56,174 bases of DNA from NCBI GenBank assembly GCA_003963115.1, contig RXJQ01000035.1, forward strand, positions 1 to 56,174. The letters are read 5' to 3'. Below the pieces are notes generated by a model that saw only the letters and a list, made by a program, of their open reading frames with translations, was not told where the DNA came from and made no database searches. This DNA comes from Burkholderiales bacterium (GTDB lineage: Bacteria; Pseudomonadota; Gammaproteobacteria; Burkholderiales; Burkholderiaceae_C). The position numbers and the translations under genes are program-made. Positions within the stretch are counted from its first letter, which is position 1, and each line of letters begins with the position of its first letter. Positions 6,935 through 11,936 of the stretch are shown one piece after another.

Positions 6935-7128
6935 GACGACGTGAGGAAGCAAGCTGAAACTTTGTGCATGAATGCTAAGGGCGGCCGGCTTTTCAAGGTG
7001 TCATGTAGCGGACGATTGACCTGAGCTTAGGATTAGCCACCTGATATGTGGGGGATGGTGGCGCGAGGCTTCGCCAAATGCTGCTAACCTGCACTTTCAA
7101 TCAATCATTCAATACGGAGGATCGTCCC

Positions 7129-7944
7129 ATGACTCGTCTCCCCAGAAGCAATTTGGCCAGGCATCTGCCGGCTTCTTGTGCATCTGCATTGGCCATGGGC
7201 CTGCTGATGCTGGGTAGCCAGCAAGCTTCGGCACAACTCAGCTATACCACTCAGCAGTACGACGTGAATGCGACCATCAAGGGTGTGTACCCAGATGGCA
7301 GCGGTGGGCTGGTTCCGGTTGACCAGTCAATCGATCGCCAGGGAGGAGACCCTGTCTCGACCTCGGTGGGGCCTATGCTCAAGGGAGCCAGAGGCACGCC
7401 GCTCGATAGCACTCACGCTGACGCAGGCTACATCTCAACATTGAATGTGGACAGCTTTCACCTGCTGCTGTGGAGTGGTGCTCTTGGAATGGTCTCAGGG
7501 GCAGGCGATGGGTTTTCCGTTCAGGTAGGCGCCGCGTCGACCTTGGCGTTCGGCTTTAGCCTGGACCGGGCGGGTGATTTCACGGTCAGTGCCACCACTT
7601 CGACGAATATGAATAATGTAAATTATGGAGACGGCTCCGTTGATTCTGCCGAAAGCATGGTGAAACTGCTGGACGCAAACCAGCAGGTCGTCTTCTCGCT
7701 GGCTGGGGGCCAGGGATTGTCGCAGGTGCTGTCGTTGCAGGCAGGAAACTACACGCTGACTGCCTCGGCCGCGAATGGCAGCTTGCTCGGCCCTGATGCG
7801 GTGTTTGCCACAGAGGCGTACGTGACAGTCGACCTCGCGGCTGTCCAGCAGGCGGTACCCGAGCCGGCCAATGCCGCCTTGATGTCGCTGGGGCTTGTTG
7901 CGGTTGGCGCGGTTGCGCGTCGCCGGCTGCAAGCAAAGGCTTGA
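7129..7944 (+). CDS. PEP-CTERM sorting domain protein
   Basis: 271 residues. The ATG at 7129 follows an excellent CGGAGG ribosome site, although the frame is open to 7048. Residues 1 to about 36 form a Sec signal peptide ending ASA-QL. The body has no domain I recognise and looks like a beta-rich secreted protein. The C-terminus has the PEP-CTERM signal: VPEPANAAL, a hydrophobic stretch, then a basic RRRLQAKA end. Such proteins are processed by exosortase and often accompany exopolysaccharide or biofilm formation. No exosortase gene is in the window. A terminator hairpin follows. Confidence 0.88.
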   Translation: MTRLPRSNLARHLPASCASALAMGLLMLGSQQASAQLSYTTQQYDVNATIKGVYPDGSGGLVPVDQSIDRQGGDPVSTSVGPMLKGARGTPLDSTHADAGYISTLNVDSFHLLLWSGALGMVSGAGDGFSVQVGAASTLAFGFSLDRAGDFTVSATTSTNMNNVNYGDGSVDSAESMVKLLDANQQVVFSLAGGQGLSQVLSLQAGNYTLTASAANGSLLGPDAVFATEAYVTVDLAAVQQAVPEPANAALMSLGLVAVGAVARRRLQAKA

Positions 7945-8016: not shown

Positions 8017-8025
8017 TGCTACATT
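8017..8025 (+). promoter_or_regulatory. Possible extended -10 element for the aroG leader
   Basis: TGC followed by TACATT fits the extended -10 form TGnTATAAT. No -35 element at normal spacing was found. Transcription would begin near 8031-8033, at the leader-peptide ATG itself, giving a nearly leaderless mRNA. Weak evidence by sequence alone. Confidence 0.3.
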
Positions 8026-8032
8026 GGTGAAC

Positions 8033-8107
8033 ATGTACAGCGCCCGCTTCTACTTTTGGCATTTTTACTTCTCGCCTTCGACCGGCGCAGGAGTGGCCAA
8101 GTCATAA
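8033..8107 (+). CDS. Aromatic-rich leader peptide upstream of DAHP synthase
   Basis: A 24-codon reading frame, not a normal protein gene. Codons 6-13 read Phe-Tyr-Phe-Trp-His-Phe-Tyr-Phe, and with Tyr2 there are eight aromatic residues in the first 13. It stands about 100 bp before the gene for the first enzyme of aromatic amino acid synthesis and is followed 20 bp later by a terminator. This is the expected layout of an attenuator sensing charged tRNA-Phe, tRNA-Tyr and tRNA-Trp together. GGTGA lies only 2 nt before the ATG, too close for a good ribosome site, so leaderless initiation is possible. No homologue search was made. Confidence 0.75.
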   Translation: MYSARFYFWHFYFSPSTGAGVAKS

Positions 8108-8159
8108 GCAAGCCACACCACATCCTGAAAACCGCCGGTCCACCCCGGCGGTTTTTTTT
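8040..8159 (+). promoter_or_regulatory. Transcription attenuator of aroG
   Basis: Four mutually exclusive segments are visible: 1, GCGCC (8040-8044); 2, GACCGGCG (8080-8087); 3, CGCCGGTC (8133-8140); 4, CCGGCGG (8145-8151). Segment 1 can pair with GGCGC (8084-8088, overlapping segment 2) over 5 bp, segment 2 with 3 over 8 bp without mismatch, and segment 3 with 4 in the terminator. A ribosome stalled on codons 6-13 would cover segment 1 and free segment 2 to break the terminator. The pairings are read from the sequence; the mechanism is inferred by analogy with trp and phe attenuators. Confidence 0.7.
8128..8159 (+). terminator. Attenuator terminator upstream of aroG
   Basis: AAAACCGCCGG (8128-8138) pairs with CCGGCGGTTTT (8145-8155) around a six-base loop, followed by an unbroken T run to 8159. 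It lies between the leader peptide and the DAHP synthase gene, with no gene ending nearby that would otherwise need it. Confidence 0.9.
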
Positions 8160-8209
8160 CATCCACGCACGCACAACGTACGCCAACTTCACCCGCAACA
8201 GGAAGCCCC

Positions 8210-9328
8210 ATGAACGCCAAATCCAGCGCCGCAGAAGGCTGGGTCCCACCCGCCGACAAGACCTCGCAGACCGATGACGAACGCATCAAGAACGTCACGC
8301 CGTTGCCCCCGCCCGAGCACCTGATCCGATTCTTCCCGATCCGCGGCACGCCGGTGGAGACGCTGGTGGCGCACACGCGCAAGGCCATCCGCAAGATCGT
8401 GCACGGCAAGGACGACCGCCTGCTGGTCATCATCGGCCCCTGTTCCATCCACGATCCGGCCGCGGCCGTCGAGTACGCGGGCAAGTTGCGGACGCTGCGC
8501 GATCAGTACGCCGACACGCTGGAAGTCGTGATGCGCGTCTACTTCGAGAAGCCCCGCACCACCGTGGGCTGGAAGGGTCTGATCAACGACCCGTATCTGG
8601 ATGAGAGCTTCAAGATCGACGAAGGCCTGCGCATGGCCCGTCATCTGCTGCTGGAGATCAACCGCCTGGGCGTGCCCGCCGCCAGCGAGTTCCTGGACGT
8701 GGTTTCTCCTCAGTACATCGGTGACCTGATCAGCTGGGGTGCCATCGGTGCGCGCACCACCGAAAGCCAGGTTCACCGTGAACTCGCTTCGGGCTTGAGC
8801 GCACCGATCGGTTTCAAGAACGGCACGGACGGCAACATCAAGATCGCCACAGACGCCATCCAGGCTGCCGCACGTCCGCACCATTTCCTGTCTGTGCACA
8901 AGAATGGTCAGGTCGCCATCGTCGAGACGGCCGGCAACCCCGACTGCCATGTGATCCTGCGTGGCGGCAAGGAGCCCAACTACGACGCCGGCAGTGTGGC
9001 CGCCGCCTGCAAGGACCTGGAAGCCGCCAAGCTGCATCCTTCGCTGATGGTCGATTTTTCGCATGCCAACAGCTCCAAGCAGCATGAGCGCCAGGTCGTG
9101 GTGGCCAAGGACATCGCCGCGCAGGTGTCGGGCGGTTCGACCAAGGTGTTCGGCGTGATGGTGGAAAGCCATCTGTGCGCCGGCGCCCAGAAGTTCACGC
9201 CGGGCAAGGACGATCCGTCCAAGCTGACCTATGGCCAGAGCATCACGGACGCCTGCATCGGCTGGGACGATTCGGCTGATGTGCTGAAGATCCTGTCCGA
9301 TGCGGTGAAGGCGCGCCGCGTGCGCTGA
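8210..9328 (+). CDS. aroG: 3-deoxy-7-phosphoheptulonate (DAHP) synthase, class I
   Basis: 372 residues. It contains GPCSIHDPAAA near residue 76, MRVYFEKPRTTVGWKGLINDP near residue 105, and VMVESHLCAGAQ toward the end, all typical of the AroG/AroF/AroH family. The enzyme condenses phosphoenolpyruvate with erythrose 4-phosphate in the first step of the shikimate pathway. Family members are feedback-inhibited by Phe, Tyr or Trp; which applies here cannot be read from sequence. AGGAAG precedes the ATG. The upstream aromatic leader peptide and terminator imply transcriptional attenuation. A terminator follows the gene, so it is transcribed alone. Confidence 0.95.
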   Translation: MNAKSSAAEGWVPPADKTSQTDDERIKNVTPLPPPEHLIRFFPIRGTPVETLVAHTRKAIRKIVHGKDDRLLVIIGPCSIHDPAAAVEYAGKLRTLRDQYADTLEVVMRVYFEKPRTTVGWKGLINDPYLDESFKIDEGLRMARHLLLEINRLGVPAASEFLDVVSPQYIGDLISWGAIGARTTESQVHRELASGLSAPIGFKNGTDGNIKIATDAIQAAARPHHFLSVHKNGQVAIVETAGNPDCHVILRGGKEPNYDAGSVAAACKDLEAAKLHPSLMVDFSHANSSKQHERQVVVAKDIAAQVSGGSTKVFGVMVESHLCAGAQKFTPGKDDPSKLTYGQSITDACIGWDDSADVLKILSDAVKARRVR

Positions 9329-9426: not shown

Positions 9427-10113
9427 ATGAGCGCCGCCGCCCCTCACTTTCTGCTGGTTGACGACCACGCCTTGTTCCGCACAGGGCTGGGTCTGATGCT
9501 GTCGGAGCACTGGCCGCAGGGGCGCGTGACGCAGGCGGCCACCTGGCAGCAGACGCTGGCGGCTTTGCAGGTGGAAACGCCTGACCTGATCCTGCTGGAT
9601 GTGAACCTGCCCGATGGCCATGGCCTGGCGGACTTGCCGGCCCTGCGCGTGCCGGCGCCGCAGTGCCCCGTGCTGATGATGTCTGCCGACGTCAATGGCG
9701 AGCAGATTCGCCAGGCGCGTGAGGCAGGCGTCACGGGCTTTCTGCCCAAGGTGGCGTCGGCGCCGGAGGTGCTGGAGGCCGTGCGATCAGCCTTGCGCGG
9801 GCAGCTCAGCTATGCGGCCGTGCCCTATAAGGTGTTGTCGCCGGCGCGCGCGGTGGGCGATGGTGCAGGACATGGCGCAGGTGAGGCCGTAGCGCATGTG
9901 GCCGAAGCGCCGCCCTCGGCCTTGACCGCGCGCCAGCTGGCCATCCTCCAGTATCTGGGGCGCGGTACGCCCAACAAGGCCATTGCCCGCAAGATGGGCA
10001 TGAACGAGACCGAGGTCCGTGCCGAGGTGTCGTGGCTCACGGAGTGGCTGGGCGCCAGCAGCCGCGAGCAGGCGCATGCCGAGGCCGTGGCCAGAGGGTT
10101 GTTGCAGCCATGA
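9427..10113 (+). CDS. LuxR/NarL-type response regulator
   Basis: 228 residues. Residues 1 to about 125 form a receiver domain: the acidic pair in LLVDDHALFRTGL, the phosphoacceptor Asp in LILLDVNLPDGHG, and the conserved Lys in GFLPK. Residues about 160-220 form a LuxR-like helix-turn-helix (LTARQLAILQYLGRGTPNKAIARKMGMNETEVRAEVSWLTEWLG). The gene overlaps the next one, a hybrid histidine kinase, by 4 bp (ATGA), so the two are a cognate pair. Targets are unknown. Confidence 0.9.
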   Translation: MSAAAPHFLLVDDHALFRTGLGLMLSEHWPQGRVTQAATWQQTLAALQVETPDLILLDVNLPDGHGLADLPALRVPAPQCPVLMMSADVNGEQIRQAREAGVTGFLPKVASAPEVLEAVRSALRGQLSYAAVPYKVLSPARAVGDGAGHGAGEAVAHVAEAPPSALTARQLAILQYLGRGTPNKAIARKMGMNETEVRAEVSWLTEWLGASSREQAHAEAVARGLLQP

Positions 10114-11936
10114 AGCTGCCCGCCCCCTTGACGCGAGCCTGGCGCTTCGACAGCCCCAGGGTCTTGTCGGCGCAGATGGAATTGTTGGACCGCAACCTGC
10201 CTTATGCCTTCATGATCTCGGCCATCGTGGCCCTGTTGACGGCATGGATCGGCAGCCATGCCGGCCACATCGAAGGGACATGGACCTGGGCCCTGGGCAC
10301 CACCGGCGTGACCTTGCTGTGCCTGTCGGTGCGCCAGGCGTTGCCGTCGCCATCCGACCAGAGCAAGGTGCTGATCTACGCCCACATCGTGCGCATCATG
10401 GCGGGCATCATCGGCCTGTGCTGGGGCGCCCTGGGTGTGCTGATGCTGGACTTTGCCAACCCGATCTCCATTGCCATTGTGCTGGGCATCACGGCGGGCA
10501 TGAACTCGGGGGGGCTGGCGGTGTTCGCGCCGTCCTGGCCGGTGGCCATCACCTACTGGCTGACCAATATCACGCCGGTGATGGCGGTGTTGCTGCGTTC
10601 AAGAGATGAGTTCGGTTTCCTGATGGGGCTGGCGGTCACCCTGTACCTGATGGCCATGACGGTGTTTTCCTACTTCGCGTCACGTGGCGCCTTGCGGGCC
10701 ATCGAGCTGGGCTTCGAGAACGAGGGGCTGGTCACGCGCTTGCGGGACCAGACACAGCGGGCGTTGGAGGCGCGCCAGGTGGCCGAGGTGGCCCTGGCCG
10801 AGGCAGAGGAGGCCAACCGCGCCAAGACCGTGTTCCTGGCGTCGGCCAGCCACGACCTGCGCCAGCCCTTGCATGCGATGGGCCTCTTTCTTCATGCCCT
10901 GGCGAGGTCGGACCTGAACGAGCGGCAGGCCCATTTGTTGTCGCAGGCACATGCCTCGGCGCAGGCCACTGGCGAGATGCTCAACACTTTGCTCGATTTC
11001 TCCAAGGTGGATGCGGGCGTGGTCAAGCCGCAGATGCAGCCCTTTGCCTTGCAGCCCCTGCTGCGCAAGCTGGAGCGGGAGATGGCGCCGCTGGCCGAAG
11101 AAAAGGGCTTGGCCTTCCGCACGCGGGACTCGTCCGTGGTCCTGCATGCCGACCCCGCGCTGGTGGAAATGATCCTGCGCAATCTGGTGCTCAATGCCAT
11201 CCGCTACACCGAGCAGGGGGCCATCCTGCTGGCCTGCCGGCGTCGGGGCATGCGTGCGGTGATCGAGGTGTGGGACACGGGTATGGGCATAGCGGCCGAG
11301 CAGCACGCAGCGATCTTTCGCGAGTTCCACCAGCTGGGCAACCCGGAGCGCGACCGCCGCAAGGGCCTGGGGCTGGGCTTGGCCATCGTGGAAGGGCTGG
11401 CCAGGGCCATGAGCGTGGACGTCACCTTGCGCTCGCAGCCGGGCAAAGGTTCGGTGTTTCGCTTGTGGCTGCCGGTGAGCATGGCGCCCTGGGCCGCATC
11501 ATCCGAGCCGGTGTCCGACGACGAGCCCGATCTCAGTGGCTTGAAGGTGCTGCTGATCGATGACGACGAAACCGTGCGTGCGGCCATGTGCGATCTGCTG
11601 GCCAGCTGGGGCTGCTGGTGCGAGGCCGTGGCCAGCGACGACGATGCCATGCCAGTTATCCACGGCTTCGACCCGGACGTGGTGCTGGCCGACTACCGGC
11701 TGCGCAGTCACCGTACGGGCTTGCAGGCGGTGCAGAGTGTGCGTCAGCGTTTGGAGCGCCATGTGCCGGCGGCCATCCTCACGGGTGACACGGCGCCGGA
11801 GCGCCTGCGCGAGGCACACGATAGCGGCCTGCCCTTGCTGCACAAGCCGGTGTCGGCCGAGCGCCTGCAGGCCACGCTCTTCAGTCTGTGGCACGAGACG
11901 GCCTCCCCGCCCGTGTTTGCATCAGCAAGAGGCTGA
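10110..11936 (+). CDS. Hybrid sensor histidine kinase with C-terminal receiver
   Basis: 608 residues from the ATG overlapping the regulator stop; an upstream in-frame ATG at 10032 lies inside the regulator gene and is rejected. Residues about 30-190 hold six or so membrane segments with no periplasmic sensor of note. The dimerisation box ASHDLRQPLHAMGLFLHAL lies near residue 245, and the ATPase boxes NLVLNAIRYT (about 360), DTGMGIA and GLGLGLAIVEG follow. Residues about 478-600 are a receiver with LLIDDDE, VVLADYRL (phosphoacceptor Asp about 526) and LLHKP. The input signal is unknown. The last 56 bp overlap the convergent MFS gene. Confidence 0.9.
   Translation: MKLPAPLTRAWRFDSPRVLSAQMELLDRNLPYAFMISAIVALLTAWIGSHAGHIEGTWTWALGTTGVTLLCLSVRQALPSPSDQSKVLIYAHIVRIMAGIIGLCWGALGVLMLDFANPISIAIVLGITAGMNSGGLAVFAPSWPVAITYWLTNITPVMAVLLRSRDEFGFLMGLAVTLYLMAMTVFSYFASRGALRAIELGFENEGLVTRLRDQTQRALEARQVAEVALAEAEEANRAKTVFLASASHDLRQPLHAMGLFLHALARSDLNERQAHLLSQAHASAQATGEMLNTLLDFSKVDAGVVKPQMQPFALQPLLRKLEREMAPLAEEKGLAFRTRDSSVVLHADPALVEMILRNLVLNAIRYTEQGAILLACRRRGMRAVIEVWDTGMGIAAEQHAAIFREFHQLGNPERDRRKGLGLGLAIVEGLARAMSVDVTLRSQPGKGSVFRLWLPVSMAPWAASSEPVSDDEPDLSGLKVLLIDDDETVRAAMCDLLASWGCWCEAVASDDDAMPVIHGFDPDVVLADYRLRSHRTGLQAVQSVRQRLERHVPAAILTGDTAPERLREAHDSGLPLLHKPVSAERLQATLFSLWHETASPPVFASARG

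What the first reader, a model, noticed from the sequence alone, without database searches (positions are those of the whole stretch)
8033..8159. Aromatic leader peptide attenuator controlling DAHP synthase
Codons 6-13 of a 24-codon frame read Phe-Tyr-Phe-Trp-His-Phe-Tyr-Phe, directly before a strong terminator and the first gene of aromatic amino acid synthesis. Three alternative pairings can be drawn: 8040-8044 with 8084-8088, 8080-8087 with 8133-8140 (8 of 8), and 8128-8138 with 8145-8155. A single leader mixing codons for all three aromatic residues would let one ribosome sense Phe, Tyr and Trp together, instead of the usual separate feedback routes. I do not recall a description of this device in Burkholderiales.
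Basis: partly seen in the sequence, partly recalled or inferred. Interest (0 to 1): 0.78.

Follow-up and report, generated by a model that had tools for sequence, protein, structure and literature searches.

The report
Leaderless pan-aromatic attenuator of DAHP synthase
In front of the one gene found in this genome for the first step of aromatic amino acid synthesis lies a tiny reading frame packed with Phe, Tyr and Trp codons and then a terminator, an arrangement conserved in many related bacteria and predicted to switch the gene on when any of these amino acids runs short.

Summary
Window 8033-8107 encodes MYSARFYFWHFYFSPSTGAGVAKS, followed by an intrinsic terminator and the only DAHP synthase gene found in the genome (8210-9328).

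The device is conserved. Aromatic leaders precede 88 distinct DAHP synthase loci of 110 fetched. In 300 genomes of the order, 77 of 79 listed full-length covariance-model hits lie directly upstream of a DAHP synthase, in 14 families; two more lie outside the order. Third-position-only codon differences in the aromatic core are 4070 synonymous to 67 not. The antiterminator strand lies inside the frame and changes together with both terminator arms, though some pairing tests gave no support.

Beyond the finding: an extended -10 box ends 6-8 nt before the leader ATG in 58 of 66 loci of two groups, with little Shine-Dalgarno, so the leader mRNA is predicted to be leaderless. Phe control codons are mostly UUU (67% against 11% in the gene).

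Corrections: Trp is lineage-specific (65 of 88; 36 of 79), and the claimed 1:2 pairing is not conserved in this clade. Nothing seen in Rfam or the searched papers describes it. Attenuation itself is inferred.

The parts
8017..8025 (+). extended -10 promoter box TGC-TACATT; hexamer 8020-8025 ends 7 nt before the leader ATG (predicted transcription start at A8033)
   Evidence: sequence; TGnTAnnnT at 6-8 nt in 58 of 66 loci of two groups, shuffled about 0.15 in all; start site not mapped; consensus scan found no promoter
8033..8107 (+). leader peptide frame, 24 codons, MYSARFYFWHFYFSPSTGAGVAKS, predicted leaderless
   Evidence: aligned with 87 other leaders; synonymous substitution pattern
8048..8071 (+). 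control codons 6-13: TTC TAC TTT TGG CAT TTT TAC TTC
   Evidence: alignment
8080..8087 (+). segment 2, antiterminator 5' strand GACCGGCG inside the frame
   Evidence: pairs 8 of 8 with 8133-8140; covariation
8088..8127 (+). distal part of the antiterminator: 8088-8092 CAGGA with 8123-8127 TCCTG, 8093-8097 GTGGC with 8112-8116 GCCAC
   Evidence: fold; complement of at least 4 nt in 21 of 21 leaders of the clade, 33 of 44, 5 of 10 and 0 of 12 of the other groups
8133..8140 (+). segment 3, antiterminator 3' strand, overlapping the 5' arm of the terminator
8128..8159 (+). intrinsic terminator: 8128-8138 with 8145-8155, loop 8139-8144, T run 8152-8159
   Evidence: [AG]CCGCC...GGCGG[TC] found before the gene in 88 of 88 leaders
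8200..8205 (+). Shine-Dalgarno-like AGGAAG of the DAHP synthase gene
   Evidence: by eye
8210..9328 (+). DAHP synthase gene (AroFGH type), the only DAHP synthase found in the genome

Best explanation
This is a conserved leader-peptide region before the only DAHP synthase gene found in the genome, predicted to work as a ribosome-mediated transcription attenuator that reads Phe, Tyr and likely Trp supply at once. Shown by sequence comparison: a frame with the substitution pattern of translated sequence and with aromatic control codons, a uniform terminator, an antiterminator strand inside the frame that changes together with both terminator arms, and the association with DAHP synthase. Inferred: transcription likely starts at the A of the leader AUG, so a ribosome would load on a leaderless 5' end. 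If charged tRNA-Phe, tRNA-Tyr or tRNA-Trp is short, the ribosome would stall in codons 6-13, leaving 8080-8097 free to pair with 8112-8140; the terminator arm 8132-8138 would then be captured and the gene read. If all three are plentiful, the ribosome would run on over segment 2 and the distal stem to the stop codon, the terminator 8128-8155 would form, and a transcript of about 127 nt would be released. UUU codons, unusual in these genes, would slow decoding at Phe positions.
For: Aromatic leaders precede 88 distinct DAHP synthase loci of 110 fetched. In 300 genomes of the order 79 full-length model hits were listed, at most one per genome; 77 lie upstream of a DAHP synthase (65 by coordinates; 12 by tblastn), including all 75 with E at or below 6.3e-6. 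Two hits in one family outside the order also precede a DAHP synthase. Third-position-only codon differences in seven core columns, counted over pairs of sequences: 4070 synonymous, 67 not; TTN/TAN codons are TTT 245, TTC 120, TAT 64, TAC 97, TTG 7. Terminator motif in 88 of 88. Antiterminator: 76.2% of cells paired, 72.4% in shuffles, at most 43.2% when slid; 45 double-change cells against 22.7, 0 of 500 shuffles as high. Three-way state ORF|5' arm|3' arm: C|G|C 54, T|A|T 15, A|T|A 2, T|G|C 5, not fitting 12 of 88. Leaderless signature in 21 of 21 and 37 of 45. One DAHP synthase found in a genome 99.6% complete (the other PF00793 hit is KdsA). The upstream gene at 7048-7944 has no match in the held stretches of the other 109 loci, so the terminator goes with the DAHP synthase.
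Against: No expression data. RNAalifold found no pairs on alignment A1. Synonymous recoding showed no selection for ORF-arm pairing: 6 of 88 within the best 5%, and the window's clade paired worse than its recodings (-13.4 against -15.1 kcal/mol). Swapping arms between groups was own-best for two groups, a tie for the window's clade, and own-worst for Oxalobacteraceae-type frames. In one search two of five measures did not exceed shuffles clearly (pairs with a change on both sides 4, 238 of 500 shuffles as high; further pair types 14, 52 of 500), and these shuffles do not correct for relatedness. Trp is absent from 23 of 88 leaders, 7 of 21 in the window's clade, and the window's Trp column holds Trp in only 14 of 88 (12 of 21 in the clade). 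The promoter and terminator scan found nothing. The 110 loci were chosen by similarity to the window's enzyme. 19 of the 110 loci show no leader at the score used, and one search found no full-length model match in them.
Confidence: 0.78

Rival explanations
1. The attenuator senses Phe and Tyr only; Trp codons are tolerated but carry little signal.
For: Phe and Tyr occur in 88 of 88 leaders, Trp in 65 of 88 and in 36 of 79 of the family-spread sample; all 10 Oxalobacteraceae-type leaders lack it. The window's own Trp column holds Trp in 14 of 88 leaders and in 12 of 21 of its clade; other members have Gly, Ala or Ser there.
Against: Another core column holds Trp in 44 of 88 leaders of two groups, so Trp is placed in the run more than once; no second DAHP synthase for Trp was found in this genome.
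Confidence: 0.2
2. The frame is translated from an ordinary 5' UTR; TGCTACATT is not the promoter box, or the start lies upstream.
For: The promoter scan found none; Burkholderia-like and Oxalobacteraceae-type loci lack the box at this place (0 of 12, 0 of 10) and show TATAAA- or TATAGT-like boxes further upstream by eye.
Against: Spacing of 6-8 nt to the ATG in 58 of 66 loci against about 0.15 in shuffles, C at -1 in 76 of 88, weak anti-Shine-Dalgarno energy at the leader start.
Confidence: 0.15
3. The hairpin is the terminator of the upstream gene and the aromatic frame is incidental.
For: A frame ends at 7944 on the same strand.
Against: That gene has no match in the held stretches of the other 109 loci, while leader and terminator persist in 87 of them; 77 of 79 full-length model hits precede DAHP synthase; aromatic run absent from 40 simulated windows.
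Confidence: 0.01

Closest known systems
Classical leader-peptide attenuators of Enterobacteria (trpL, pheL, hisL, ilvL)
   Same: Short translated frame with control codons, intrinsic terminator, mutually exclusive antiterminator, biosynthetic target gene (recalled; trp, his, leu, thr, ilv and pheA attenuators are listed in a passage of PMC1183508 seen).
   Different: Target is the common first step; Phe, Tyr and often Trp codons mixed in one run; antiterminator strand inside the frame; no conserved 1:2 stem in this clade; little Shine-Dalgarno. Mixed control codons as such are known from ilvL (recalled).
Leaderless trpL / rnTrpL of Sinorhizobium meliloti
   Same: The attenuator RNA starts with the ATG of the leader frame (PMC7298713, passages seen).
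   Different: Trp only, trpE target, alphaproteobacterium; action in trans of its RNA and peptide is reported there, nothing of the kind is known here. Leaderless leader peptides are also reported in Streptomyces lividans (PMC8079986, passages seen).
uORFC-13-1 motif upstream of aroF in Acholeplasma
   Same: Predicted leader-frame attenuator before a DAHP synthase gene (PMC8632094, that section read).
   Different: 24 representatives in Acholeplasma and unassigned environmental sequences, at least one Phe codon, no Tyr/Trp run described, a distant lineage. Its sequence was not compared here.

Membership tests
Ribosome-mediated transcription attenuator | short translated leader frame rich in codons of the pathway's end product | tested here: met
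   translation inferred from the substitution pattern
Ribosome-mediated transcription attenuator | intrinsic terminator between leader and gene | tested here: met
   the simple scan missed it
Ribosome-mediated transcription attenuator | antiterminator that takes the terminator's 5' arm | tested here: met
   no support
Ribosome-mediated transcription attenuator | 1:2 protector hairpin (a usual feature, not an essential one; recalled) | tested here: not met
   complement of 5 nt or more in 2 of 21 of the window's clade, 12 of 44, 3 of 10, and 12 of 12 Burkholderia-like
Ribosome-mediated transcription attenuator | readthrough rises on starvation for the sensed amino acid | not testable with these tools
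   needs a reporter experiment
Rfam RNA families (the library holds leader families and the T-box, by recall) | match at the curated gathering score | tested here: not met
   none in the window; Leu_leader at 8088-8158 with 20.1 bits, gathering 50
Leaderless attenuator RNA (rnTrpL type) | transcript 5' end is the leader AUG | tested here: inconclusive
   promoter spacing and scarce Shine-Dalgarno; start site not mapped

The most novel reading that the evidence does not exclude
One leaderless mRNA acts as a three-input OR gate: a single stalled ribosome on Phe, Tyr or Trp codons opens the entry to the whole aromatic pathway, and the released transcript of about 127 nt and its 24-residue peptide act in trans on other aromatic genes, as rnTrpL and peTrpL act in trans in Sinorhizobium.
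Probability: 0.1. Interest if true: 0.82.

Novelty: new variant of a known kind. Interest (0 to 1): 0.62.

Why it matters
It supplies a predicted control for entry into aromatic amino acid synthesis in a large group of bacteria; the one comparative study of aromatic regulons read here (PMC5343134, section 10) describes TrpR and TyrR regulons in gammaproteobacterial lineages only. It shows how one sensor could stand in for three dedicated isoenzymes, and it gives a natural series of leaders with and without Trp, with and without a 1:2 stem, and with and without the leaderless signature, in which the logic of attenuation can be tested directly.

Tried and rejected
A synonymous-recoding test for selection on ORF-arm pairing gave no support; GC-rich arms pair with most recodings. 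RNAalifold on the gappy alignment gave no pairs. The simple promoter and terminator scan found nothing. A protein-conservation reading of the C-terminal part (TGAGV, PGGRE, LADREG) was dropped because the antiterminator strand is encoded there. The upstream-gene terminator reading was rejected. A count of class II DAHP synthases over the order could not be made, as the search did not complete. Isoenzyme type was not settled by family names: the protein is above the cut-offs of TIGR00034, NF009395 and NF009396 (a Trp-sensitive AroH model) and just below that of NF006723 (AroG).

The literature search was limited to the held open-access library: ten listings, passages or term counts from PMC2965389, PMC4833913, PMC5343134, PMC8632094, PMC5688073, PMC5760752, PMC4603805, PMC7298713, PMC8079986, PMC11955535, PMC1183508, PMC10219788, and one section each of PMC8632094 and PMC5343134. 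In what I saw none describes a DAHP synthase leader in Burkholderiales. Vitreschak et al. 2004, a survey of proteobacterial attenuators (recalled, and cited in a passage), was not read and may mention it. Supplementary tables of the Burkholderia cenocepacia transcript papers were not available to me and may list the short transcript.

Full report
Observation. The frame, control codons, terminator and the three pairings are in the sequence at the stated coordinates. FYFWHFYF is the only 8-codon run with at least 7 of F/Y/W in six frames of the window, and none appeared in 40 simulated windows. The terminator folds at -19.9 kcal/mol (z -5.28). 8073-8144, which lacks the 3' arm, folds into one long hairpin at -26.9 kcal/mol (z -4.57) with 8080-8087/8133-8140, 8088-8092/8123-8127 and 8093-8097/8112-8116; with the 3' arm present the terminator is in the best fold.

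Gene and genome. 8210-9328 encodes a class I DAHP synthase. In the whole genome (99.61% complete) PF00793 finds this gene and one other, which is KdsA between pyrG- and eno-like frames (neighbours named by recall), and PF01474 finds none.

Conservation, sample 1. The best short frame in up to 400 nt upstream was scored for aromatic density, after turning minus-strand loci (the earlier one search had them unturned). With a score of 4.5 or more, 88 distinct leaders remained after dropping L008 (same contig as L031) and L106 (a GTG frame in Vibrio, judged spurious). Of the other 20, L061 has only 37 nt upstream and 19 show no leader at this score: L027, L029, L030, three Polynucleobacter, two Cupriavidus, Thauera, Azoarcus, Rhodocyclus, Thioalkalivibrio, Pantoea, Citrobacter, Enterovibrio, three MAGs labelled as other phyla, and one beta MAG; the model search found no full-length match in these 20 or in L106. 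Named carriers include Variovorax, Acidovorax, Hydrogenophaga, Comamonas, Polaromonas, Ramlibacter, Burkholderia, Caballeronia, Paraburkholderia, Cupriavidus lacunae, Massilia, Rugamonas, Janthinobacterium and Xanthomonas bonasiae. The peptide alignment shows an aromatic core and a C-terminal part that differs by lineage. I sorted the 88 by C-terminal motif: 21 of the window's clade (TGAGV type), 12 Burkholderia-like, 10 Oxalobacteraceae-type, and a residual 45, mostly Comamonadaceae-type but with others such as Xanthomonas L103 and L024-L026.

Conservation, sample 2. A covariance model of 146 positions from 48 leaders was run on 300 genomes of the order. 135 had some match at E 0.01 or less, many of them terminator-only. 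I took the 79 full-length matches in the printed list (E up to 7.6e-4; the list was cut at E 0.0023). 65 have a listed DAHP synthase 13-146 nt downstream, 12 more by tblastn, and two of the four weakest (G267, G141) have none. 233 of the 300 genomes have a DAHP synthase of this type, so about a third of those carry a device this model can see. No genome had two full-length hits in the list. In G182 the leader is on the less similar of two DAHP synthases. Over 274 genomes of the class the only full-length hits outside the window's family were two in one family, f63, both before a DAHP synthase. The 79 leaders (77 + 2) fall in 14 families of the order plus f63; frames were picked automatically and a few are poor in aromatics (L149, L151, L191). 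A few genomes are in both samples (G000, G026, G031, G035, G036).

Translation. In seven core columns third-position-only differences are 4070 synonymous and 67 not; all single-base differences are 4070 synonymous and 3280 not (counted over pairs, so not independent). TTT makes up 245 of 365 Phe codons in the leaders, against 82 of 722 in the first 350 codons of the DAHP synthase genes of the same 88 loci.

Antiterminator. On alignment A1 of 88 sequences (87 distinct) the nine pairs between the frame and the terminator's 5' arm are formed in 76.2% of cells; slid registers reach at most 43.2%; 45 cells carry changes on both sides against 22.7 in shuffles, and the covariation score is 0.108 against 0.062 (0 of 500 for both). 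Two further measures were not clearly above shuffles: 4 pairs with a change on both sides (238 of 500) and 14 further pair types (52 of 500). At one position frame, 5' arm and 3' arm change together: C|G|C 54, T|A|T 15, A|T|A 2, plus wobble T|G|C 5; 12 of 88 do not fit. Not in support: synonymous recoding, where 6 of 88 were within the best 5% and the window's clade paired worse than its recodings; arm swapping, own-best for Burkholderia-like and residual groups, a tie for the window's clade, own-worst for Oxalobacteraceae-type; RNAalifold, no pairs.

Leaderless start. TGnTAnnnT ends 6-8 nt before the leader ATG in 21 of 21 leaders of the window's clade and 37 of 45 of the residual group, 0 of 10 Oxalobacteraceae-type and 0 of 12 Burkholderia-like; shuffles give 0.04-0.11 per group. 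Base -1 is C in 76 of 88. 15 of 88 have even a three-base Shine-Dalgarno match, and the mean anti-Shine-Dalgarno energy before the leader (-1.1 to -3.0 kcal/mol by group) is weaker than before the DAHP synthase match start (-3.9 to -6.5). In sample 2 the strict pattern is seen in 28 of 79: f1 9 of 9, f23 8 of 8, f44 5 of 7, f4 5 of 7, f40 1 of 1, none in the other ten families. The leaderless start is thus a prediction for several families, not for all. S. meliloti rnTrpL shows that such an attenuator exists (PMC7298713, passages).

Amino acids sensed. In sample 1, Phe and Tyr are in 88 of 88; Trp in 14 of 21 (window's clade), 41 of 45 (residual), 0 of 10 (Oxalobacteraceae-type) and 10 of 12 (Burkholderia-like). 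The window's Trp column holds Trp in 14 of 88, another column in 44 of 88. In sample 2, Phe 79, Tyr 72, Trp 36, all three 35 of 79. For the window all three are present; for the kind as a whole, Phe and Tyr are the core.

Geometry (inferred, with a recalled footprint of about 12 nt beyond the first A-site base). Ribosomes waiting at codons 6-12 leave 8080 onward free; at codon 13 about two bases are covered. A ribosome at the stop codon 8105-8107 would lie on about 8088-8117 and so on the distal antiterminator stems. This fits the proposed switch.

Comparison. No Rfam family reaches its gathering score (weak Leu_leader). The nearest published predicted case I saw is uORFC-13-1 of Acholeplasma (PMC8632094, section read). 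The kind is known; the pan-aromatic run on the entry enzyme, the leaderless signature and the spread over the order are, as far as the searches listed under Tried and rejected go, not described.

Noticed in passing
window 8048-8071 and relatives: Phe control codons are mostly UUU in leaders (245 of 365) although the DAHP synthase genes of the same loci use UUC (640 of 722).
   Followed up: partly
window 7048-7944: The upstream gene, which ends in a PEP-CTERM-like tail (recalled motif), has no match in the held stretches of the other 109 loci; it may be a local insertion before the attenuator.
   Followed up: partly
Burkholderia-like leaders (L078-L080, L082-L084, L086, L087, L089, L090, L092, L105): The start of the frame pairs with the antiterminator strand in 12 of 12, so the N-terminus MSAK may be fixed by RNA structure.
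   Followed up: partly
L074, L073, L076, L081: MAGs labelled Bordetella parapertussis, Planctomycetota, Verrucomicrobiia and Gemmataceae carry a DAHP synthase 66-71% identical to the window's; labels or binning look doubtful. Of the four only L074 has a leader.
   Followed up: no
L057, L058, G182:C15: Two Cupriavidus genomes and unnamed G182 hold a DAHP synthase close to the window's (76-77%) without the leader; in G182 the less similar copy has it.
   Followed up: no
window 9427-11936: A response regulator-like and a hybrid histidine kinase-like frame follow the DAHP synthase (by eye); the first is found in the held stretches of 17 of the other 109 loci.
   Followed up: no
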